A program made the translations under genes and the position numbers. A DNA stretch of 64,000 nt from Leptotrichia sp. oral taxon 847 (lineage in GTDB: Bacteria; Fusobacteriota; Fusobacteriia; Fusobacteriales; Leptotrichiaceae). Below, in pieces: positions 13,552 to 24,523 of this stretch (its first letter is position 1; each line of letters starts with the position of its first letter). The stretch is taken from positions 62,001 through 126,000 of the forward strand of contig NZ_CP014231.1 of the NCBI RefSeq assembly GCF_001553645.1. The letters run 5' to 3'. The notes under the pieces are model-generated. The model had not been told where the DNA came from. It searched no databases and was given only the letters and a program-made list of their open reading frames with translations.

Positions 13552-13932
13552 ATGTTTAAAGAATTTAAAGAGTTTATTTCAAAAGGAAATGTGTTAGACT
13601 TAGCAGTTGGTGTTATTATTGGAGGAGCTTTCGGGAAAATTGTAACTTCTTTAGTAGATGATATAATTATGCCAATTGTAGGACTTATCATAGGAGGAAT
13701 TAATTTTTCAGGATTAAGTTTTAAAATAGGAGATGCGACTGTAAAATATGGAATGTTCATCCAAAACATCGTAAACTTTTTAATCATCGCATTTTCTATA
13801 TTTTTAGTAATAAAAGCGGTAAATAAAATGAGAAGAATTAACCCTGAAAAAGAAGAAGCGCCAGTTGAACAAAAAAAATCTAATGAAGAAATTTTGTTAA
13901 CTGAAATAAGAGATTTGTTGAAAAATAAATAA
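13552..13932 (+). CDS. mscL: Large-conductance mechanosensitive channel
   Basis: This is a 126-residue homopentameric inner-membrane channel that opens on osmotic downshock. The N-terminal amphipathic helix and TM1 carry [36 protein letters not shown], which matches the MscL consensus. TM2 is [24 protein letters not shown]. The C-terminal helix with [15 protein letters not shown] forms the cytoplasmic bundle. Length is normal and the ribosome binding site is GGAAGAGAGG. Confidence 0.95.
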
Positions 13933-13954
13933 AGTATTTAAAGTTAAATTTTTA

Positions 13955-14052
13955 AAAATCAGAAAAAATCCTATTGAGGCAGAAAATGGATTAAAACTGA
14001 ACAATAGTGAAGTAAACAGTATCTATGATGAAAAAGATATGATAAATGCCAA
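13955..14052 (+). pseudogene. Upstream remnant of the CdiA-like gene in another frame
   Basis: Between mscL and the long frame at 14053, a short open frame reads NPIEAENGLKLNNSEVNS and ends DMINAK before a TGA at 14053-14055 region. Its style matches exoprotein repeats and it abuts the long frame in a different phase, so the parental haemagglutinin gene was truncated and frameshifted here. Confidence 0.5.
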
Positions 14053-17000
14053 GTGAATGAAAATTCAAGTATAACTTACAACAATGTAAACAACATAACT
14101 TATCAGGGGACACAGGCACAAGGCGGAACATTTATCTACAACAATGTAAAAAATATTCGGAAGGAAGCAGTAGAACTTCATAATAGCAACAGTTCAAGAA
14201 GTTCAAATTTTGGAATAAGTACGGGAGCGACAATTGGATATGGCTACAGAACACAAATTACTGGAAATGGTGGAAGTGTTTCTGCAAATAGAAGTAATCA
14301 AAATACAACTGAAACTATTTATCAAAATGGTAATTTTCAAAATGTAAATGAAGTTCACAATAATACTGGTACAATGACACTTTCAGGATTTAATCAGGAA
14401 GGCGGAAAAGTTACAGGTAATATCGACAAGCTGGTTGTAGAAAGTAGACAGAACACAAGCACGACAACTGGAAGCAGTAGTGGAATAGGAATTGGAATAA
14501 GTGCGAATGGAATGCCAAATTCCGTAAATGTAAATGGAAGCAGAACAAATGGAAGTAGAGCATTTGTAGATAATCAAAGCAGCTTTATTGTTGGAGAGGG
14601 AAGTAATCTTCATGTTGGTACAGTTGAAAATACTGGAGCTATTATTGGAAAACAGAGTGAAAATGGTACTACATTTAAAGCTGATAAGTATATTGGCCAC
14701 GATATTCAAAACTACGATACAATGACAACAACAGGAGTTTCAGTAGGGAGTTCATTAGGTAGATCTCCTAGAGTTACAAATATCGGATTTAATCAAGATG
14801 ACAGGGATAAACAAGGAATTACTAGAAATACGGTAGTTGGAAATGTAGAAATAGGCGAAGCTTCTGGAAGTCCAATAAATAAGGATGTTACAAAAGCTAA
14901 TGAAGTTACAAAAGATGTGCAGCATTCTACGAATGTTAATGTTGAGAGCCAGACTATTGAGTATGCTACTAATCCAACAAAATTTAAAGAAGATTTGGAA
15001 GTAGCAATACTTGAAGGAAAAGCGACAGGTGAAACAGTTTTAAAAACAATAGAAAATCTTGTAAATGGTGGAAAAGAAGACATCGGAGATCCTGAAAGAA
15101 GAAGCTTAAACGAAATCAAGGAAGCTGTAATAAGGGTTAAGACAGCACCTGAAATGAATTTGATAGCAACAGGAGATTTAAACTCGCAGGAAGTGCTGGA
15201 TACTTTAAAAATAAATGGAATAGAAAAATTTAATCCTGATGATCCTGATTTGCCAGAAAATGTAAAGGAAAGACTTGATGAAGTAAGAAAAAGTGGTGGA
15301 GAAATCGAAGCATTTTATGATAAAACGACAAATAAAATATTTATCAATGAAAATGTGGAAGATGGCGAAACAAGAGCCTTGGTTGCAAGAGAATGGAAAA
15401 TCTCTGAAGATTTAAAAGATGGAAAAGGAAAAGCAAATGATGAAGGTCAATTAAAAGCGACTGTTGCAGGGGAACTGGCTTATGATGATATGATGAAAAG
15501 GGCTGGGGAAGGTAAGACTGGAAGTATTAGTACAGGAGAGCTTAGTGAGGCTGTTATGGATGTTAATAGTGAGGTTACATCTGACAATGTATTAGGTTGG
15601 ATAGGTGCTCAGTATAAAAAAGTAAAGAAAAAAGTAGAAAACTCTCCTACGTATAAGAAAATTAGAAAAGAAATACAGAAAATTCAAGATAATCCTATTG
15701 GTTATGCGAAAAGTTTAGCAGAGCAAGGAAGTAACCACGCTGCACATAAGTGGACGGTAACAAAAAATAATGCAAAAAAATTCTATAACAATGTAGCAGG
15801 ATTTATTACAGGAGAAAATAAAAATGTAACTAGATCAAAAAATGCAAAACTGGATGACGCTAACAAAAGAAGTGAAAATGAAAGAAACAAAAGAGATAAA
15901 CGATCACAAAATAATTTTATCGCCGAAACAAAAAATAAAGTAGCAAAAAAGAATAGAGATAAAGAAAGTAAGAAAGCTATAAATTCTTTAAAAGAACAAA
16001 TTAAGGCGACAAGAGATCCTAAAAAGAGAAAAAAATTGCAGGATCAATTAGAAATTGTAGAGCCACATACTTTTCGAGAAGGATTAAAATCAGCTGGAAA
16101 AGTTTTAAAAGACACAGTTGCTTCAGCACCATTTATACCAGTTGTAGAAAAAGTAGGAAAAGTTGTATTAGCTAGTCCATCATTGACAGTAGGAGGTTTA
16201 TTTCTTTTAACTTCACAAAATATGGGAACTAATGATCAATTTCCCCCCCACCTAAAAAACTTAAATAATGAAAAATATTCCTTGAAAGAAAGTGAATATA
16301 TAAAAAATAATTATCCATATTATTATAAAGATTATGAAGTTTCAAAAAAGACAACAACTAAAAAAAATACTTTTGACAAGAAAAAAATTGATTTAGAAAT
16401 TGCTGGAAAATACAGTGATAAATGGAAAAAAGAAGAAAATGCTAGGGCAATAGGTGAAATAGCAGGTGGATTTTTAGGCGGGGCAGTAGCAAAGGGCATT
16501 TCGAAAACTATTGTTAAAAAAAGTGAAAATCTTAATATAGGAAAATTATTTGAAAAAGTCAAAACTGCACCTGTGGTCAAGAATTATTATAATGTTATAG
16601 GGACGACTAAAGAAGAAAATTTTAAAATCAGAAATATAACGTCTAAATATGACGATTTCTACGGATATGAATACAATGCCTATACAAATCCAGGACCATT
16701 AGCAGAATTAAATGATCATCCCCATTTGAATTTTTATGGTGGTCGATATAACAGCAGAGTTTTGACAGAAGATACGATTTATTATAGGGCTGGAGATGCT
16801 AATAACAAATATGGAAGATATTTTGTCGAAACTCCACCAAAATCAGTAATTCAAGTAAGAATGGATACAGCAGTTAAGCCTTATTGGACTAATAAACGAA
16901 CTGGAATGTGGGAAAAAAATGATTTAGGAATAGATATATCAGGAAAATCAAAAATAGAGAAGATATATACAGTTAGAGTGCCAGCAGGAACGGTTATATA

Positions 17001-17115
17001 TGAAGGTCCAGTTGCACCACAAGGTGGAATGTATTTAGGAGGAATGGAAACAAATCAGATATTTTTACCTGATACTAGACTGCCAGGAATTGAATTTTTT
17101 GAATATGTTAAATAG
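14053..17115 (+). pseudogene. C-terminal part of a CdiA-like exoprotein with toxin domain, 5'-truncated
   Basis: This 1020-codon open frame lacks the signal peptide and TPS secretion domain expected of a two-partner exoprotein. It begins at a GTG with no ribosome binding site. Residues about 1-300 are Asn/Gly/Thr-rich beta-helix repeats (NSNSSRSSNFGIS, GNVEIGEASGSP). Residues about 300-480 are a pre-toxin segment (KIFINENVEDGETRALVARE), followed by a very basic helical region with many Lys/Arg (about 510-680) and a hydrophobic stretch. Residues about 860-1020 form a compact toxin-like domain: YGYEYNAYTNPGPLAEL, GGRYNSRVL, IYYRAG, SVIQVRMDTAVKPYW and VPAGTVIYEGPV ending QGGMYLGGMETNQIF. The Arg/Gly-rich start and GGxxxGG-Q end resemble TNT/ART-type NAD-directed toxins, by inference only. 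The last domain is nearly repeated at 18243-18732. The following gene is the likely immunity partner. Confidence 0.7.
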
Positions 17116-17142
17116 AATAAATATGATTAGGAAGTGAAAAAA

Positions 17143-17550
17143 TTGGAAATATATTTAAAATTAAAAAAGACAATAGAAAATTTTTTGGAAGTAAGAAAAA
17201 ATTCTATTCAGGAAATGAAATTAAAAGAATCAAATGGATTAAATATTCAGTATTATTTGTATTTAGTTAATTGTTTAATATATGAACAGCTAGAGAAAAT
17301 TCCGAAAAATTTTAAAGATGAATTAAAAGAAGAAATATTAAACTGGACAAGATATAGAGCTAGTTATGGGAAATATGATCCTTTAGAAGATTATAATCTT
17401 TTAAGCGATTCTTATGGTTGGGACGATAAAGAAAAAATGGAAAAATTAAGGAAAATTAATGTAAAATTATCAGAACTTATAAAAGATATTACAAAAATAA
17501 GTACAGAAATATTAGAGAATAAACTTTATCCTTTTGAAGATTCAGAATAA
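17143..17550 (+). CDS. Candidate immunity protein to the 14053-17115 toxin
   Basis: This 135-residue acidic, all-helical protein immediately follows the toxin domain (28 bases). The start is taken as TTG 17143 rather than GTG 17134: AGGAAG lies 8 bases upstream, and the product then begins MEIYLKLKKTIENFLEVRKN, aligning with MEKYVELKKAIEEFLELRKN of the paralogue at 18759. The two paralogues also share a YDPLxDY-type segment (KYDPLEDYNLL / KFDPLLDYYFV) and a C-terminal coiled-coil-like helix. Position after the toxin and co-duplication with it are the basis for the immunity call. I do not recognise the family. Confidence 0.65.
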   Translation: MEIYLKLKKTIENFLEVRKNSIQEMKLKESNGLNIQYYLYLVNCLIYEQLEKIPKNFKDELKEEILNWTRYRASYGKYDPLEDYNLLSDSYGWDDKEKMEKLRKINVKLSELIKDITKISTEILENKLYPFEDSE

Positions 17551-17784
17551 TTTAAATATTAAACAATTGACTGAGCTTTTATTTGTGTAACTTCGACTGT
17601 TTGACAGACGATAGGACGGAGTTTCGGAGTTATGCAAATTGGAGATTGAGTGCACGCGATGTGAAACGTGAAATGGCGCCCTTTTCACATAAAATGATAA
17701 ATTTACTTCAAATGATAAAATAATCCAAAATCTCCTTAAAATTAATACAAATTATGGTATTATATTAAATAATAACTTAATTAA
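17551..17784. other. Noncoding spacer with fragments of the dispersed repeat
   Basis: This spacer has no credible gene. At 17598-17640 the string CGACTGTTTGACAGACG, followed by GAGTTTCGG, resembles the GACTGTTTGAACGAAGTGAGTTTCGG core of the long dispersed repeats, so it is probably a diverged fragment. GTGAAA/TTTCAC arms at about 17660-17690 flank a GGCGCC core and can form a hairpin. Local G+C is clearly above the neighbours. Confidence 0.4.
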
Positions 17785-18732
17785 CTGGTAAATGGATTAA
17801 GTTTCGTAGGTTCAATAGCAACTGCACCTGTGAGGGCGGCACTTAAACCTGTAGCGACTTCTGCAAAAGCAGAAGCAACGGTGACAAGATATGATAATGG
17901 CTACACACAAAGAAACACGTCATCGCCAGTTTATGACAATGGATATGCACAAAGGCTGGAAACAATCAACTACACGAATTCATCTGTTGTATACGATGCA
18001 AGCGAAAAAGTGTATCGCTATGCACCACAGCCATCAAATTGGAACATAGGTGTGGCAAAATCAATTACTTCAACTGGAAATACATATAGCTACGTACCAC
18101 AGGTGCCAGGACTGTCGGAACCGTTAAGAACAGGCATAATACCGCTTACAACCCCTGAAAGTTATAAGGCGACAGAGCAGATAACAAATACTGTAAGAAA
18201 TACATTTGGAGATGAAACAAAAGGAAAAAGTCTCTTTGAAGATGGAAACTTTACATCGAAATATAATGATTTCTACGGATATGAATACAATGCCTATACA
18301 AATCCTGGACCTTTGGCAGAATTAGAACAAAATAATAATTTTTATGGAGGAAGATATAACAGTAGAGTTTTAAGAGAAAATATAGTTCTATATAGAGCTG
18401 GTGAAAATGGTCCAAAAAAAGAATTGGGACAATATTTTGTCAAAACTCCACCACAGTCAGTAATTCAAGTGAGAACTGATACAGCTGTTAAGCCTTACTG
18501 GCCTGATAAAAGAACTAATGTTTTTTATGTGGATGAAGAAGGGAAAACAAAAGTTTATAAATCTCCTATTGAAAAAGTATATGCAATTGAAATACCAGCA
18601 GGTACAACAATTTATGAAGGACCAGTAGGATATCAAGGTGGGATGTATCTGGGTGGAATGGAAACCGAACAAATATTTATACAAGAGCCTTGGAAAATAC
18701 CAGGAATTAAAGTCTTGAAATATCCAAAATAG
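17785..18732 (+). pseudogene. Orphan toxin C-terminal cassette (second copy)
   Basis: An open frame runs from about 17785 (LVNGLSFVGSIATAP) with no start codon or ribosome binding site; the first usable codon is GTG 17830. Residues about 1-130 (counted from 17830) are a Tyr/Asn/Thr-rich spacer with repeated YDNGY(T/A)QR and VPQVPG motifs, quite unlike the first copy. From about residue 140 the toxin domain parallels the one at 16630-17115: YGYEYNAYTNPGPLAEL, GGRYNSRVL, LYRAG, QYFVKTPPQSVIQVR, DTAVKPYW, IPAGTTIYEGPV and GGMYLGGMETEQIF. Such promoterless cassettes downstream of cdiA are known as orphan cdiA-CT modules and can recombine into the parental gene. A specific immunity paralogue follows. 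Confidence 0.7.
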
Positions 18733-18758
18733 TTAAAAATTAAGGAAGGAAATATAAA

Positions 18759-19151
18759 ATGGAAAAATATGTAGAATTAAAAAAAGCAATAGAAGAATTT
18801 TTAGAACTAAGAAAAAATTTAAACAATAGAAAAGATATTAAAGAGTCACATAGTTTATCCTTAATAAGTTATTTATGTATAGTTAACTATTTAGTATACG
18901 GAAAAATTAGCAGATTTCGTGAAGATGTAAAAAAGGATATAGAAGAAGAATTTCGAAAATGGAGTCAAAATTTAGGAAAATTTGATCCATTGTTAGATTA
19001 TTATTTTGTATCTGTTACTTCAGACGGAAAAGATTCAGAAAAAAATGAAGAAATAAGACAAATTAATATAAAAGTTGGAGAATTAACACATAAAATAAAA
19101 AAACTTAGTATTGAAATTTATATAAATGATCTTATACCTTGGAGAAATTAA
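18759..19151 (+). CDS. Candidate immunity protein, paralogue of 17143-17550
   Basis: This 130-residue helical, charged protein has a good ribosome binding site (AAGGAAGG) and begins MEKYVELKKAIEEFLELRKN. It is clearly homologous to the protein at 17143 along its length but has diverged, as expected if each immunity protein matches its own toxin variant. It lies 26 bases after the second toxin cassette. It stays intact although the toxin upstream lacks a start, a usual sign of retained protective function. Confidence 0.65.
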   Translation: MEKYVELKKAIEEFLELRKNLNNRKDIKESHSLSLISYLCIVNYLVYGKISRFREDVKKDIEEEFRKWSQNLGKFDPLLDYYFVSVTSDGKDSEKNEEIRQINIKVGELTHKIKKLSIEIYINDLIPWRN

Positions 19152-19505
19152 ATAAACTTGAAGCATACTGCACCCAAAATTTAGCTAGAAGTCTAAATTT
19201 ATATATAATGAAGCTGAGGGACCTGATAGGGAACTCGGAGAGGACGACAGACGGAATAAAGAGAATACTGAAACATACTGAAGAGCGTGGAAGCGGAAAG
19301 TGCTGTACAGAAGTTCATGAGGATAGGATACGTTGACACGAAAGGCAAGACACAGCAGCAGGTGAAGCAGGAGGAGGATAAAATAAAAAAAGAAGCAGCT
19401 AGAAAGGCAATGAATAAAGCATTAAAAGACATGGAAAAATCTCCTAATGATTCTAATAGAGCAAAAGGACAGCCTAGTAAAGGAGGAGGAAATAAAAAAA
19501 GATGA
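19152..19505 (+). pseudogene. Toxin/exoprotein fragment, degraded
   Basis: This segment of broken reading frames is distinctly richer in G+C than its surroundings (about half G+C by eye between 19208 and 19370). Open pieces include NEAEGPDRELGEDDRR and, in another frame from 19287, a basic helical tail (RIGYVDTKGKTQQQVKQEED, ending SKGGGNKKR) that stops at the start of the next gene. It looks like the end of a third exoprotein toxin that has lost most of its body. Composition suggests a different origin. Confidence 0.5.
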
Positions 19506-20059
19506 TGACAGAAACTTTTATAAATGAAACTTATGGAATAAATGGAATAACAAGAATATCATTAAAAAAAATAATAAAAGTATTTTCATTTCCGAATGAA
19601 ATAAATATAAAGTTTTCTAATAAAAAAAAATCAATAGATATAAAGTTTATTTATGATGGATTAGAAGTCTATTATATGCTGTATTTTTTTTCAGAAAATA
19701 TTGAAAAACCTGAATATCAAACATTATATTTTGATGTAAAATATATACATTTAAATGATGATAGCATAAAAATAGGTGATGAAATAAAAACTGTAATTCC
19801 AAAAATAAAAAAATATTTAAAAAGAAATAAGAAAAATATAAACTTTGAATACGATGAAGATAAATATACAGGGAGATATTTATTTGATAATAAAAATATT
19901 GATATATTTTTTGAAAAATGCAGAAATAAAAAAATTGTTGATGGTATAATGATAAGCTTACCTTATGAAGATATTTTGCCAGAAAATAAAGATATTTTAA
20001 ATGAAATAGAAGATATTATAGAAATAAAAAATAAAATTGATAATCTTTTTTGGAAATAA
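19502..20059 (+). CDS. Candidate orphan immunity protein
   Basis: This is a 185-residue acidic, soluble protein of unknown family with an AAAGGAGGAGG ribosome binding site just upstream. Its ATG overlaps the stop of the degraded toxin tail (ATGATG context), the coupling typical of toxin-immunity pairs. Composition is dominated by Ile, Lys, Asn, Asp and Glu. It has beta-rich early segments (NEINIKFSNKKKSIDIKFIY) and a helical C-terminus. No catalytic motif is visible. The immunity role is inferred from position only. Confidence 0.55.
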   Translation: MMTETFINETYGINGITRISLKKIIKVFSFPNEINIKFSNKKKSIDIKFIYDGLEVYYMLYFFSENIEKPEYQTLYFDVKYIHLNDDSIKIGDEIKTVIPKIKKYLKRNKKNINFEYDEDKYTGRYLFDNKNIDIFFEKCRNKKIVDGIMISLPYEDILPENKDILNEIEDIIEIKNKIDNLFWK

Positions 20060-20465
20060 AGAAATACCTTCATAGGAAAATACGATCTGTTAAATTTATT
20101 CCTTTTTAGAGGAATACTACATATGAATAATCAATATATTAATTTTTAAAAGTTTTATTTCAAATAAAACAAAAATTGTAAACTTGTTTTAATAGCAAAT
20201 TAAATTTTAAAATAATCGTTGTTGTAGAAGACAGCGGTTATTTTTCTCTCATTTTTAGACATTCCAAATTAACAAAAAATTTTGATTATCTCAAATTCAC
20301 CCATATAACCTCTACAAGCCAAAATTTTTATTTAAGGCATTTTTATACCGAAAATTGATTTTTTGAACTGTATGTATGTTATATGGGCTTTTAAAATGAT
20401 ATTTTTTAAAATTTATAATAAAAGTTAAAAGTTTTAATTTCTTTCTTTAAAGCAGACATTTACAT
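20060..20465. other. Intergenic region with a terminator; otherwise nothing recognised
   Basis: AT-rich spacer. A hairpin with T-run at 20211-20247 is the one recognisable element. The rest (20250-20465) includes a short string CCATATAACCTCTACAAGCC and a long poly-T/A stretch without coding potential. Confidence 0.4.
20211..20247 (+). terminator. Terminator-like hairpin, first copy of a cassette-end motif
   Basis: AATAATCGTTGT pairs with ACAGCGGTTATT (12 bp with two G-U pairs) around an 8-base loop, followed by TTTCTCTC. A related hairpin with the same left arm and loop occurs at 22556-22590, also at the end of a cassette. Confidence 0.6.
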
Positions 20466-20756
20466 TTGTATGTGATTAATGCTAAAATAATAAAAAAAGA
20501 ATGGAATATTGACATGACAAACAGGGATTTCTATATCAATATAGGAGCAAATGTCAGATATTCTACTTTTAATAATAATTTTTACACAATTGGAAATATT
20601 GAAATAGGCGAAGCTTCTGGAAGTCTGATAAACAGAGATGTTACAAATGAAATTTTTGCTAATGAAGTTTTAGGACATTTTTATACTTTTATGCAAGTTG
20701 CGTTGAAAGCAAAAGATAAGAAAGGATTATTTGATAAAAATGAAATTAAAAAATAA
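20466..20756 (+). pseudogene. Fragment of a CdiA-like exoprotein
   Basis: This 96-codon frame contains IGNIEIGEASGSLINRDVTN, matching VGNVEIGEASGSPINKDVTK of the long exoprotein frame near 14838-14890. The flanks are unrelated or decayed and the start (TTG) has no ribosome binding site. It is a recombination remnant of the shared pre-toxin region placed just before another small gene. Confidence 0.7.
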
Positions 20757-21291
20757 AATACAACGGTTATTATTAATTTTATTATTTATATTTAATTGTA
20801 ATTTATTTTCTTCAAGTTATTTATCTGTTAGTTACTATGTGGGTGGAAATGGTTTAATGAATGTAAAAGTTTCGTATAAAATTTATGATAACAAAATAGA
20901 AGTAGAATCATATATTCGAAACAAATTTTTATATTCAATAGAAAGATCATATAAAAAATATCAAGATAAAAAGAAATTAGAAAATTTAATAAAAAATAAT
21001 GACAATCTTTTAAAAAAAGAAAATTTTAATTTTTTAAAAAGATGTATAAAAAATTGTAAAAAAACTAATACAAATGTTGTATTAACAGCAGAATTTATAG
21101 AAGAAAAAATGCCTGAATTTACAAATTTTTTGGTCTATAAAAATGAATTATATGAAGGGAAAAATATAAAATTTTACAAAATAAAATTTAAAAATGAGGA
21201 ATATTTAATTTTTGATGATTTAAAATTATATAAAAATTCAAAAATAAAAAAAATACTTTTGGCGTTATCAGGATTAAAAAATTATAATTAA
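20740..21291 (+). CDS. Secreted or membrane-anchored protein, candidate immunity
   Basis: This 183-residue protein has a hydrophobic N-terminus (KIQRLLLILLFIFNCNLFSSS) that could be a signal peptide or a lipoprotein signal (LFIFNC-type). The mature part is Lys/Asn/Tyr-rich with a pair of cysteines (RCIKNCKK). AAAGGA at 20721 fits either a TTG at 20731 or this ATG. It overlaps the preceding exoprotein fragment, the usual place for an immunity gene, but family and function are unknown. If it is immunity, its export suggests a target in the envelope. Confidence 0.55.
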   Translation: MKLKNKIQRLLLILLFIFNCNLFSSSYLSVSYYVGGNGLMNVKVSYKIYDNKIEVESYIRNKFLYSIERSYKKYQDKKKLENLIKNNDNLLKKENFNFLKRCIKNCKKTNTNVVLTAEFIEEKMPEFTNFLVYKNELYEGKNIKFYKIKFKNEEYLIFDDLKLYKNSKIKKILLALSGLKNYN

Positions 21292-21307
21292 TATAATCAA
21301 TTGTTAA

Positions 21308-21643
21308 AGTAAATTATGTAAAATTATCAAAAATTCCAAAACAGATGTATACGCTTTTGTCAAAATATTTAAAAAAACTGGAGAAATTTGGGTACTTGAT
21401 AGTAAACAGATTGCAAAATCAGGAAATATGAGTGTATCAAATAAAGGGGCAGGTGGAGCTAGACAAATGTCTCCTGACTGGGTAAGAAATGTATCAAGTA
21501 AACTAGACAAAAATAATCCAGTAAAAAAAGCAATTGATGAAGCAATAGATAAAGGAAAAATAAATACTGGATTAGTAGGAATTGATAAGAAAACAGGAGA
21601 GTTAATTTTTATTCCAACAAGAATTACTAATATAAAAAAATAA
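21308..21643 (+). pseudogene. Orphan toxin C-terminal fragment, possibly nuclease-fold
   Basis: An open frame without start or ribosome binding site reads VYAFVKIFKKTGEIWVLDSK, then GAGGARQMSPDWVRNVSSKL and later GLVGIDKKTGELIFIPTRIT. The pattern of a beta strand ending in Asp-Ser-Lys, a Gly-rich loop, Gln-Met-Ser and a Trp-Val helix recalls restriction-endonuclease-fold polymorphic toxins, where the D-x-K dyad is catalytic. This assignment is tentative. It is followed 18 bases later by an Imm49-like gene. Confidence 0.55.
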
Positions 21644-21661
21644 TGAAGAGAGGAAAAAACT

Positions 21662-22546
21662 ATGAAAAACATATTAGCAGGAGAGAAAAAATACAAAAAA
21701 GGGTACATAAAAGTTAGTCATGAATATTTAGATGAAGAGGCTGAAAAAAGAAGATTAGAATATATATCAAATAAAAAAGGGGATCAGTTTGGATGTATGT
21801 GGACTTTTTCTAGTGATTATTGTGGTATATCATCTAAAAATTTATTAATAGAGAAAAATATTGAAAAACATAGATTAAATTGCTATATAGGTGGGAAACT
21901 AAGAATACTCTCTACAGGTAGATCAAGTATGCTTGTTACTCACCCAACTCAAATGTTTGAAATGTTTATGTCTAATAATCCAGATTTTATAACATTTTTC
22001 AAAAATAATATTGATATGATAATGCCTGATGATTATGATAGTAAAAAAAATAAATATGGTTATTTAAAAAATGATTATGGAACATTTTTCTTAATTCGTG
22101 TAATTCTTCATGCAATAAGAGGAGATTTTGAAGAAGTCAAAAAAAGATGTACTGTATATTTGAAAAATCCATTGAAAGACAGTTATTATAAATATGGGGA
22201 ACTGCACTATGAATTTTTAGGTGCTTTGGCAGATAAAGATATTGATGGAATGAAAAAAGCGATAGACGGGATGATGGAACAAAAAGTGGCAAGAAAATTT
22301 TCAAATGATAATAATCCAAACTATGAATTTTACTTGCATGTATATGTCATAATATACGCCAAAATAGCATTATATCACGGAATAGACTTGGAAATTGACA
22401 ATGAAGTAGCACCAAAAGAATTAATAGACATAACTCCGCTTGAAAAATATGAAGATCCGTATGATTTTATGAAAGATTTTGATTTGGCAACAGTAACACC
22501 GAAAGAATGGAAAGAATGGAAAAATAGCTGGAATTTGAATTTATAA
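21662..22546 (+). CDS. Immunity protein, Imm49-like
   Basis: This 294-residue soluble helical protein is preceded by AAGAGAGG and follows the toxin fragment by 18 bases. The C-terminal part (YVIIYAKIALYHGIDLEIDN, then APKELI) and the preceding repeat-like helices (LADKDIDGMKKAIDGMMEQK) resemble the Imm49 family of polymorphic-toxin immunity proteins. The N-terminus has a Cys/Trp-containing segment (GCMWTFSSDYCG). Family assignment is by recall and needs a profile search. The gene is intact despite its fragmentary toxin, consistent with an orphan immunity function. Confidence 0.6.
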   Translation: MKNILAGEKKYKKGYIKVSHEYLDEEAEKRRLEYISNKKGDQFGCMWTFSSDYCGISSKNLLIEKNIEKHRLNCYIGGKLRILSTGRSSMLVTHPTQMFEMFMSNNPDFITFFKNNIDMIMPDDYDSKKNKYGYLKNDYGTFFLIRVILHAIRGDFEEVKKRCTVYLKNPLKDSYYKYGELHYEFLGALADKDIDGMKKAIDGMMEQKVARKFSNDNNPNYEFYLHVYVIIYAKIALYHGIDLEIDNEVAPKELIDITPLEKYEDPYDFMKDFDLATVTPKEWKEWKNSWNLNL

Positions 22547-22555
22547 AATTTTCAA

Positions 22556-22590
22556 ATAATCGTTGTTGTAAAAGACAGCGCTTTTTTTTC
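22556..22590 (+). terminator. Terminator at the end of the toxin/immunity island
   Basis: CGTTGT/ACAGCG stem with loop TGTAAAAG followed by eight T. It shares its left arm and loop with the hairpin at 20211-20247. Confidence 0.65.
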
Positions 22591-22726: not shown

Positions 22727-24523
22727 ATGTTAAATCAAAAAAACAAAAGAAATTTTTCTATAATTGCACATATTGATCATGGTAAATCAACAATTGCTGA
22801 TAGATTATTAGAATTTACTGGAACGGTAACAAAAAGAGAAATGGTTGACCAAGTATTAGATAGTATGGATTTAGAGCGTGAAAAAGGTATAACGATAAAG
22901 GCCCAAGCTGTTACACTTAATTATAAAGCTAAAAATGGTGAAATTTACGAATTAAATTTAATTGACACTCCTGGACATGTGGATTTTATTTACGAAGTTT
23001 CCCGTTCACTTGCAGCATGTGATGGAGCGCTTTTAGTAGTCGATGCAGCTCAAGGGATAGAAGCGCAAACTTTAGCAAATGTTTATTTGGCTTTGGAAAA
23101 TGACTTGGAGATACTTCCTGTAATCAATAAAATTGATTTGCCGTCAGCTGACCCTGACAAAGTGAAACTGGAAATAGAAGATGTGATAGGACTTCCAGCT
23201 GATGAAGCAGTTCTGGTTTCTGGAAAAACTGGAATTGGAATTGAAGATTTGTTAGAAGCGATAATTGAATATATTCCTGCGCCAAAAGGTGATGTAAATA
23301 AACCGTTAAAAGCGTTGATATTTGATTCTCACTATGATGATTTTAGAGGAGTTATCACATATATTAGAATTGTTGACGGAAAAATTTCTAAAGGAGATAG
23401 AATTAAAATTATGTCAACTGATAAAGAATTTGACGTCCTTGAAGTTGGAATTTTTTCACCAAAGATGAAAGAAACGAAAGAATTGACAGTCGGGTCAGTC
23501 GGATATATCATCACAGGAATAAAATCAATTAAAGATACACAAGTTGGAGATACGATTACTCACATTGATAATCCTACAGATTCGGCACTGGAAGGATATA
23601 GACCAGCACTAAGTATGGTTTTTGCTGGAATTTACCCAGTTTCCACTGATGATTATGAAGATTTGAGAGAAGCTCTTGAAAAATTACAGTTAAATGACGC
23701 TTCTTTGTCTTATGCGCCTGAAACATCACTTGCATTGGGATTTGGCTTTAGATGTGGATTTTTAGGCCTACTTCATATGGAAATCGTTGTGGAAAGGCTT
23801 AGACGAGAGTTTAACATTGACTTAATTTCTACAGCTCCGTCAGTTAAATATCACGTAACATTGGAACAGCAGCAAATGCAAGTTATAGATAATCCCGCTG
23901 AATTTCCTGAAGGGAAAAAATATATTGAAGAGCCTTATGTAAAAGGTACAATTATTGTTCCAAAAGACTATGTTGGAAATGTGATGGAACTTTGTCAGGA
24001 AAAAAGAGGAACTTTTTTAAATATGAATTATCTTGATGAAACGAGAACTATGATTAGTTACGATTTACCACTTGCAGAAATCGTAATCGATTTTTACGAC
24101 AAGTTAAAATCTCGAACAAAAGGTTACGCTTCGTTTGAATATGAAATGATTGGCTACAAAGAATCAGATTTAGTAAAAGTTGATATTTTAGTCAGCGGAA
24201 ATCCTGTGGATGCTTTTTCATTTATCGCACATAAGGATAATGCTTATTACAGAGGTCGTGCGATAGTTGAAAAATTAAAAGACGTAATTCCAAGACAACA
24301 ATTTGAAATACCACTTCAAGCTGCACTTGGAACAAAAATAATTGCAAGAGAAACAATAAAGGCACTTCGTAAAAATGTTCTTGCAAAATGTTACGGTGGA
24401 GATATTACCCGTAAGAAAAAATTGTTAGAAAAACAAAAAGAAGGAAAAAAACGGATGAAAGCGATTGGAAATGTTGAAATTCCGCAAGAAGCATTTTTAT
24501 CAGTTTTAAAATTAAATGACTAA
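22727..24523 (+). CDS. lepA: Elongation factor 4 (LepA)
   Basis: This 598-residue ribosome-associated translational GTPase helps recover stalled or mis-translocated ribosomes. Motifs: G1 AHIDHGKST near residue 15, G3 DTPGH near 82, G4 NKID near 136, and the LepA-specific C-terminal region ([21 protein letters not shown]-like) ending in the KGKKRMK-type basic tail ([18 protein letters not shown]). Length is standard. TTGGAGGAAAA gives a strong ribosome binding site. Confidence 0.97.

What the first reader, a model, noticed from the sequence alone, without database searches (positions are those of the whole stretch)
13933..22590. Row of orphan toxin C-termini with intact immunity candidates
A truncated CdiA-like end with a toxin domain (14053-17115) is followed by at least three more toxin ends or fragments (17785-18732, 19152-19505, 21308-21643) and an exoprotein fragment (20466-20756). 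Each is followed at once by an intact small gene (17143, 18759, 19502, 20740, 21662). No toxin unit has a convincing start or ribosome binding site, while the followers mostly do. Known biology: orphan cdiA-CT/cdiI cassettes behind cdi loci act as a recombination store. Inference: this is such a store left after loss of the parental gene's 5' end, kept for immunity.
Basis: partly seen in the sequence, partly recalled or inferred. Interest (0 to 1): 0.8.

Follow-up and report, generated by a model that had tools for sequence, protein, structure and literature searches.

The report
Stranded toxin tails, intact antidote genes
Between two housekeeping genes this bacterium carries a row of broken-off ends of contact-delivered antibacterial toxins, each followed by an intact and expressible antidote gene, which probably protects it from toxins of neighbouring bacteria; the arrangement is a known kind, found here away from any complete toxin gene.

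Summary
An 8.6-kb row between mscL and lepA holds five CdiA/toxin remnants, each followed by an intact small gene. Toxin domains 1 and 2 belong to one toxin family (63% identical) that has no Pfam or NCBIfam model. The same domain ends an intact 3,095-aa FHA protein in a relative and an RHS protein on a Sphingomonas plasmid, with a small gene directly behind it there too. The last pair is the 3' half of a REase-like toxin plus an Imm49-like gene; an orphan copy with an extended toxin frame stands behind a full-length cdiA elsewhere in this genome. All five followers have ribosome-binding sites; the first starts of toxin units 1-4 do not. The row is an orphan cdiA-CT/cdiI array, a kind described in 2011. 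The mscL-lepA junction is empty in four relatives and holds a different, shorter remnant in the sister species, so the row was inserted and assembled piecemeal. Cassette 1 is shared with another genus (immunity dS 0.03 against 3.2 for lepA). 5' erosion of unit 1 is visible, but no relative shows a whole cdiA here. Most likely the row is kept for immunity to foreign toxins; protection is untested.

The parts
13552..13932 (+). mscL, left flank; the row begins directly after its stop codon
   Evidence: ORF; mscL-lepA adjacency in five relatives
14014..14052 (+). out-of-frame scrap of CdiA, joined to unit 1 by a ~480-bp internal deletion at a CCAA microhomology
   Evidence: 14014-14052 matches own CdiA (L023:10322-10360), 14049 onward matches L023:10839 onward
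14053..17115 (+). unit 1: 3' part of a cdiA-like gene (hemagglutinin repeats, pre-toxin region, toxin domain 1 at 16621-17112), no usable 5' start
17143..17550 (+). immunity gene 1 (135 aa, TTG start with Shine-Dalgarno)
   Evidence: 40% identical to immunity gene 2; 97% identical to the follower of the same toxin in G019; SD -4.9
17785..18732 (+). unit 2: pre-toxin stub plus toxin domain 2 (18235-18729), no start
   Evidence: 75% identical to a G019 orphan over 316 aa
18759..19151 (+). immunity gene 2 (130 aa)
   Evidence: paralogue of immunity gene 1; SD -7.3
19152..19505 (+). unit 3: frame-broken scrap of pre-toxin region joined to what looks like a toxin's last residues
   Evidence: 91% DNA match of 19272-19373 to G019 pre-toxin; frames
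19502..20059 (+). immunity candidate 3 (185 aa)
   Evidence: SD -9.8; homologues in 10 of 80 related genomes, often solitary beside rlmB; paralogue behind a CdiA scrap at C1:1672k
20209..20244 (+). terminator-like repeat T1, ends the first sub-row
   Evidence: 15-pair stem; 9 copies in the genome, most at the end of immunity runs
20466..20756 (+). exoprotein scrap; only 20590-20647 is recognisably CdiA
20740..21291 (+). immunity candidate 4 (183 aa), hydrophobic signal-like N-terminus, no relative found
   Evidence: SD -4.5; no homologue in 80 relatives
21329..21643 (+). unit 5: 3' half of a REase-like toxin
   Evidence: 71% identical to the orphan toxin at L027, whose frame continues 5' where this one stops
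21662..22546 (+). Imm49-like immunity gene (294 aa)
   Evidence: Pfam Imm49 E 1.2e-5, slightly under the cut-off; 88% identical to the follower of the orphan toxin at L027
22547..22597 (+). terminator-like repeat T2, ends the second sub-row
   Evidence: also present in G005, absent in G007
22727..24523 (+). lepA, right flank

Best explanation
The row is an orphan cdiA-CT/cdiI array that has settled at a housekeeping junction (mscL-lepA) and is turning into an immunity-only locus. Pieces of cdi loci, from this genome and from other genera, arrived by recombination or transfer. Their toxin parts lost their starts and are decaying (two complete domains, one half domain, two scraps), while the five downstream immunity genes keep their frames and ribosome-binding sites and are probably read as two short operons ended by the same terminator repeat. 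The immunity proteins bind and neutralise matching toxins delivered by neighbours; the toxin remnants are not secreted and mostly not made. Shown: anatomy, homologies, intact frames, empty site in relatives, inter-genus sharing of cassette 1. Inferred: transcription, translation, protection.
For: Toxin domain 1/2 sits at the C-terminus of an intact 3,095-aa FHA protein followed by a 131-aa gene in G055, of an RHS protein with follower on a plasmid, and near other followers, two of which match Pfam DUF6966 (E 4e-8 and 2e-8). A REase-like toxin end plus Imm49-like gene recurs behind long cdiA frames in this genome (L027) and in another genus (L103), and Zhang 2012 lists Imm49 with Tox-REase-1 in fusobacteria (PMC3482391). 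Followers have SD sites, the first starts of toxin units 1-4 do not. Immunity genes show dN/dS of 0.2-0.7, Imm49 0.22-0.28. Imm49-like and 19502-like genes persist as solitary genes at shared loci in several congeners without toxin. Empty or different site in relatives. Cassette 1: 95.7% DNA identity to another genus with immunity dS 0.03, against lepA dS 3.2. Poole 2011 showed for E. coli EC93 that orphan CdiI is made and works while the orphan toxin does not appear to be made (PMC3150448).
Against: No expression or protection data. Immunity candidates 3 and 4 are assigned mainly by position; candidate 4 has no relative at all. Unit 1 has one internal ATG with a fair ribosome-binding site (15556), so a cytosolic fragment with the toxin could be made. 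Toxin domains 1 and 2 are still complete (tox1 dN/dS against G019 0.20), which pure immunity-keeping does not require, although recent transfer explains it. Promoter-like sites are not above chance.
Confidence: 0.72

Rival explanations
1. Recombination store: the toxin/immunity modules are kept so that full-length cdiA genes elsewhere in the genome can pick up new toxin ends.
For: Unit 1 shares 1,535 bp at 93% with a full-length cdiA at C1:38.8k and about 950 bp at 93% with others; such exchange is described in Yersinia (PMC3150448). Toxin domains 1 and 2 are intact.
Against: Units 2 to 5 have no long tract shared with the genome's own full-length cdiA genes. The nearest cdiA lies about 35 kb away across genes that look essential, so deletion-type reloading is not viable. 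Units 3, 4 and 5 have no usable toxin left.
Confidence: 0.2
2. Pure decay: a transferred cdi fragment that has not yet been deleted, with no selection on the followers.
For: Several frames are broken; G005 has a frameshifted REase tail at the same place; the sites in other relatives are empty.
Against: All five followers are intact with ribosome-binding sites while several toxin pieces around them are broken. Imm49 dN/dS is 0.22-0.28 across three comparisons. Solitary copies of the same immunity families are conserved in several species.
Confidence: 0.17
3. Assembly or sequencing frameshifts split one or more intact genes.
For: Long open frames without starts are a classic sign.
Against: Closed genome; segments match different source loci at different identities, with deletions and junctions shared with another genome; at least three loci share nearly the same truncated REase 5' end.
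Confidence: 0.02

Closest known systems
Orphan cdiA-CT/cdiI modules behind cdiBAI loci (Poole et al. 2011, PMC3150448)
   Same: Detached cdiA 3' fragments lacking translation starts, each followed by an intact immunity gene; varying amounts of upstream cdiA sequence; scraps without complete toxin.
   Different: No cdiB or full-length cdiA at the locus; the row sits at a housekeeping junction, and cassettes come from more than one source including another genus.
Polyimmunity loci (Zhang et al. 2012, PMC3482391)
   Same: Tandem, co-directional, unrelated immunity genes that may cover foreign toxins; content differs between close relatives.
   Different: Defined as never interrupted by toxin cassettes; here toxin remnants still stand between the immunity genes. 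Extended ones were not reported for fusobacteria in that paper.
Acquired interbacterial defence / orphan T6SS immunity clusters of Bacteroidales (for example PMC12247911)
   Same: Immunity genes without own toxin, horizontally shared.
   Different: Those answer T6SS effectors and, from general knowledge, often sit beside a recombinase; here the toxins are CdiA/polymorphic and no recombinase was seen in the row.
Imm49 with Tox-REase-1/6 (Pfam PF15575; PMC3482391)
   Same: Imm49-like gene directly behind a REase-like toxin end.
   Different: The toxin is only its 3' half here; Pfam score is slightly under the curated cut-off (25.4 against 30.1 bits).

Membership tests
Orphan cdiA-CT/cdiI array | cdiA 3' fragments homologous to full-length cdiA | tested here: met
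   Unit 1 is 88% identical over 533 aa to an own full-length CdiA
Orphan cdiA-CT/cdiI array | fragments lack translation initiation signals | tested here: met
   First starts of units 1-4 have no SD pairing; internal ATG 15556 in unit 1 is a caveat
Orphan cdiA-CT/cdiI array | each fragment followed by an intact immunity gene | tested here: met
   Five intact followers with SD; immunity function itself not tested
Orphan cdiA-CT/cdiI array | located downstream of a cdiBAI cluster | tested here: not met
   Flanked by mscL and lepA; nearest full-length cdiA about 35 kb upstream. The term is used here for the module type; position is usual rather than definitional in Poole 2011
Orphan cdiA-CT/cdiI array | VENN-type motif at the toxin boundary | tested here: inconclusive
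   No VENN seen by eye in unit 1; an SEVT[SA]D stretch precedes the variable region in three proteins only
Orphan cdiA-CT/cdiI array | toxin activity neutralised by the follower | not testable with these tools
   needs co-expression
Polyimmunity locus | no toxin cassettes between immunity genes | tested here: not met
   toxin remnants between all followers
Imm49 family | match to PF15575 above the gathering score | tested here: not met
   25.4 bits against 30.1; the L027 copy scores 28.7. Called Imm49-like only
TNT toxin family (PF14021) for toxin domains 1/2 | match to the PF14021 profile | tested here: not met
   no Pfam hit and none in the PF14021 search of the genome (controls silent too)
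TNT toxin family (PF14021) for toxin domains 1/2 | TNT fold | tested here: inconclusive
   AlphaFold2 model with three sequences had pLDDT 37, not searched further

The most novel reading that the evidence does not exclude
The genus keeps immunity genes of its contact-toxin systems as a dispersed stock at several housekeeping loci (mscL-lepA, beside rlmB, ridA-cls and others), filled by cassette exchange between genera, with each row passing from toxin/immunity array to bare immunity locus; and toxin domains 1 and 2 define an unmodelled toxin family shared by FHA and RHS toxins and by copies in Latilactobacillus and Enterococcus records.
Probability: 0.45. Interest if true: 0.55.

Novelty: new member of a known kind. 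Interest (0 to 1): 0.42.

Why it matters
It extends orphan CDI arrays to what is probably a host-associated fusobacterial lineage, for which I found no paper on them, and catches the step between toxin/immunity array and immunity-only locus, with an empty-site comparison and a recent exchange between genera. It also gives a toxin family with no model and a testable partner.

Tried and rejected
TNT identity of toxins 1/2 (suggested to me by motif resemblance): no support from Pfam, NCBIfam, PDB sequence search or the PF14021 genome search. Relatives of toxin 1 in viral contigs: none. Homology of the window's immunity genes 1/2 to the DUF6966-type followers: inconclusive (hhalign probability 8.5%, E 0.004). 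Defence-system (PADLOC) and Rfam matches: none. Interval 17560-17790 as a repeat: only one weak second copy. Frameshift or assembly artefact: rejected (see rivals). Promoter scan not above shuffles. The line for the CdiA part against L023 was out of frame and is not used.
Full report
What is there. The window is part of a closed 2,194,935-bp genome.

Unit 1. Frame 14053-17115 has hemagglutinin repeats (Pfam E 4.5e-13) and is 88% identical over 533 aa to a 3,246-aa CdiA of the same genome. DNA identity is 93% over 14049-15584. Just upstream, 14014-14052 matches the same cdiA about 480 bp further 5' (L023:10322-10360, then 10839 onward), so a frame-breaking deletion at a CCAA microhomology cut unit 1 from its 5' part. 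Beyond that scrap only mscL follows.

Toxin domains 1 and 2. 16621-17112 and 18235-18729 are 63% identical. No Pfam, NCBIfam or PDB sequence matches. The domain ends a 3,095-aa FHA protein in G055 with a 131-aa follower about 24 bp downstream, an RHS protein on a Sphingomonas plasmid with a follower, and occurs in Latilactobacillus, Enterococcus, Chimaeribacter and Paraburkholderia records. Two of those followers match DUF6966. That the domain is a delivered toxin follows from this architecture; its enzymatic activity is unknown. A TNT resemblance was my lead and was not supported.

REase/Imm49 pair. 21329-21643 is the 3' half of a REase-like toxin; the orphan copy at C1:375k (L027), which lies behind a 2,820-aa cdiA, has an upstream stretch that this one lacks. 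Three loci (window, L029, G005) start the REase remnant at nearly the same point, so the truncated form itself has probably been copied. The follower is Imm49-like, and Imm49 is the listed partner of Tox-REase-1 in fusobacteria (PMC3482391). An independent pair stands in another genus (L103).

Other pieces. 19152-19505 is a frame-broken pre-toxin scrap; 20466-20756 holds about 58 bp of CdiA. Follower 19502 has homologues in 10 of 80 relatives, several solitary next to rlmB, and a paralogue behind a CdiA scrap at C1:1672k. Follower 20740 has no relative and begins with a hydrophobic, signal-like stretch (sequence reading).

Expression signals. Followers pair with the anti-SD at -4.5 to -9.8 kcal/mol; the first starts of toxin units 1 to 4 do not. 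A terminator-like repeat (AAATAATCGTTGTTGTAAAAGACAGCGGTTATTTTT) stands at 20209-20244 and near 22554-22590. The genome has nine copies, at least six of which end runs of cdi immunity genes. The row therefore reads as two sub-rows.

History. mscL and lepA are adjacent with roughly 130-240 bp between them in G007, G017, G019 and G016; G005, the sister species, has about 2 kb there: a frameshifted REase tail 91.5% identical to ours, a different follower, and the same terminator repeat. No relative examined has a full-length cdiA between them. Thus the junction was most simply empty and then filled. 16631-17573 and 17645-17907 match G019, another genus, at 96% DNA. Synonymous divergence for immunity gene 1 is 0.03 against 3.2 for lepA in the same two genomes, so cassette 1 and the junction to unit 2 were exchanged between genera recently (direction unknown).

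Whole genome. There are four loci with long cdiA frames (2,539-3,246 aa within the stretches read), three of them with orphans behind them, and the ends differ from one another. Parentless rows or scraps also lie at C1:1603-1608k, 1672k and probably 2063-2066k. Congeners carry Imm49-like and 19502-like genes as solitary genes at shared loci.

How it works. Best supported: the followers are made and neutralise matching toxins delivered by neighbours, as shown for the orphan CdiI of E. coli EC93 (PMC3150448); the toxin remnants are passengers. A recombination store is less likely here because only unit 1 has a long tract shared with an own cdiA, and simple deletion across 35 kb would remove genes that look essential. 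Whether the toxins are made, and whether the followers protect, is untested.

Comparison and novelty. The row meets the module features of orphan cdiA-CT/cdiI arrays but not their usual position behind cdiBAI; it fails the definition of a polyimmunity locus because toxin remnants remain between the genes (PMC3482391). I rate it a new member of a known kind, with modest added interest from its parentless site, the inter-genus exchange and the unmodelled toxin family.

Noticed in passing
C1:1603-1608k of the own genome (L029:5384-10263): Second row without a full-length cdiA: CdiA scrap, several small genes, toxin-1-type 3' fragment with its immunity gene, REase tail with Imm49-like gene, ending in the same terminator repeat, next to rlmB.
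   Followed up: partly
C1:2063-2066k of the own genome (L064:3600-6060): Run of small genes including one 37% identical to the follower of the toxin-1 family in an Enterococcus record, beside a frame-broken fragment that looks like a toxin end, closed by the same terminator repeat.
   Followed up: partly
nine places in the own genome, for example window 20209-20244 and 22554-22590: A 35-40 bp terminator-like repeat mostly found at the end of cdi immunity runs; it could serve as shared sequence for exchange of the gene before it (G005 and the window differ exactly between toxin tail and this repeat).
   Followed up: partly
C1:30-43k of the own genome (L023:2464-15174): cdi locus with a 3,246-aa CdiA whose end reads like a deaminase (HAE...CxxC); its cdiB is in two frames.
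   Followed up: no
loci L097, L099, L101 (G010, G008, G006): Solitary Imm49-like gene between a ridA-like and a cardiolipin-synthase-like gene in three species, no toxin nearby.
   Followed up: partly
L053:5413-5873 (G007): mscL with a frameshift near its 3' end at the otherwise empty mscL-lepA junction.
   Followed up: no
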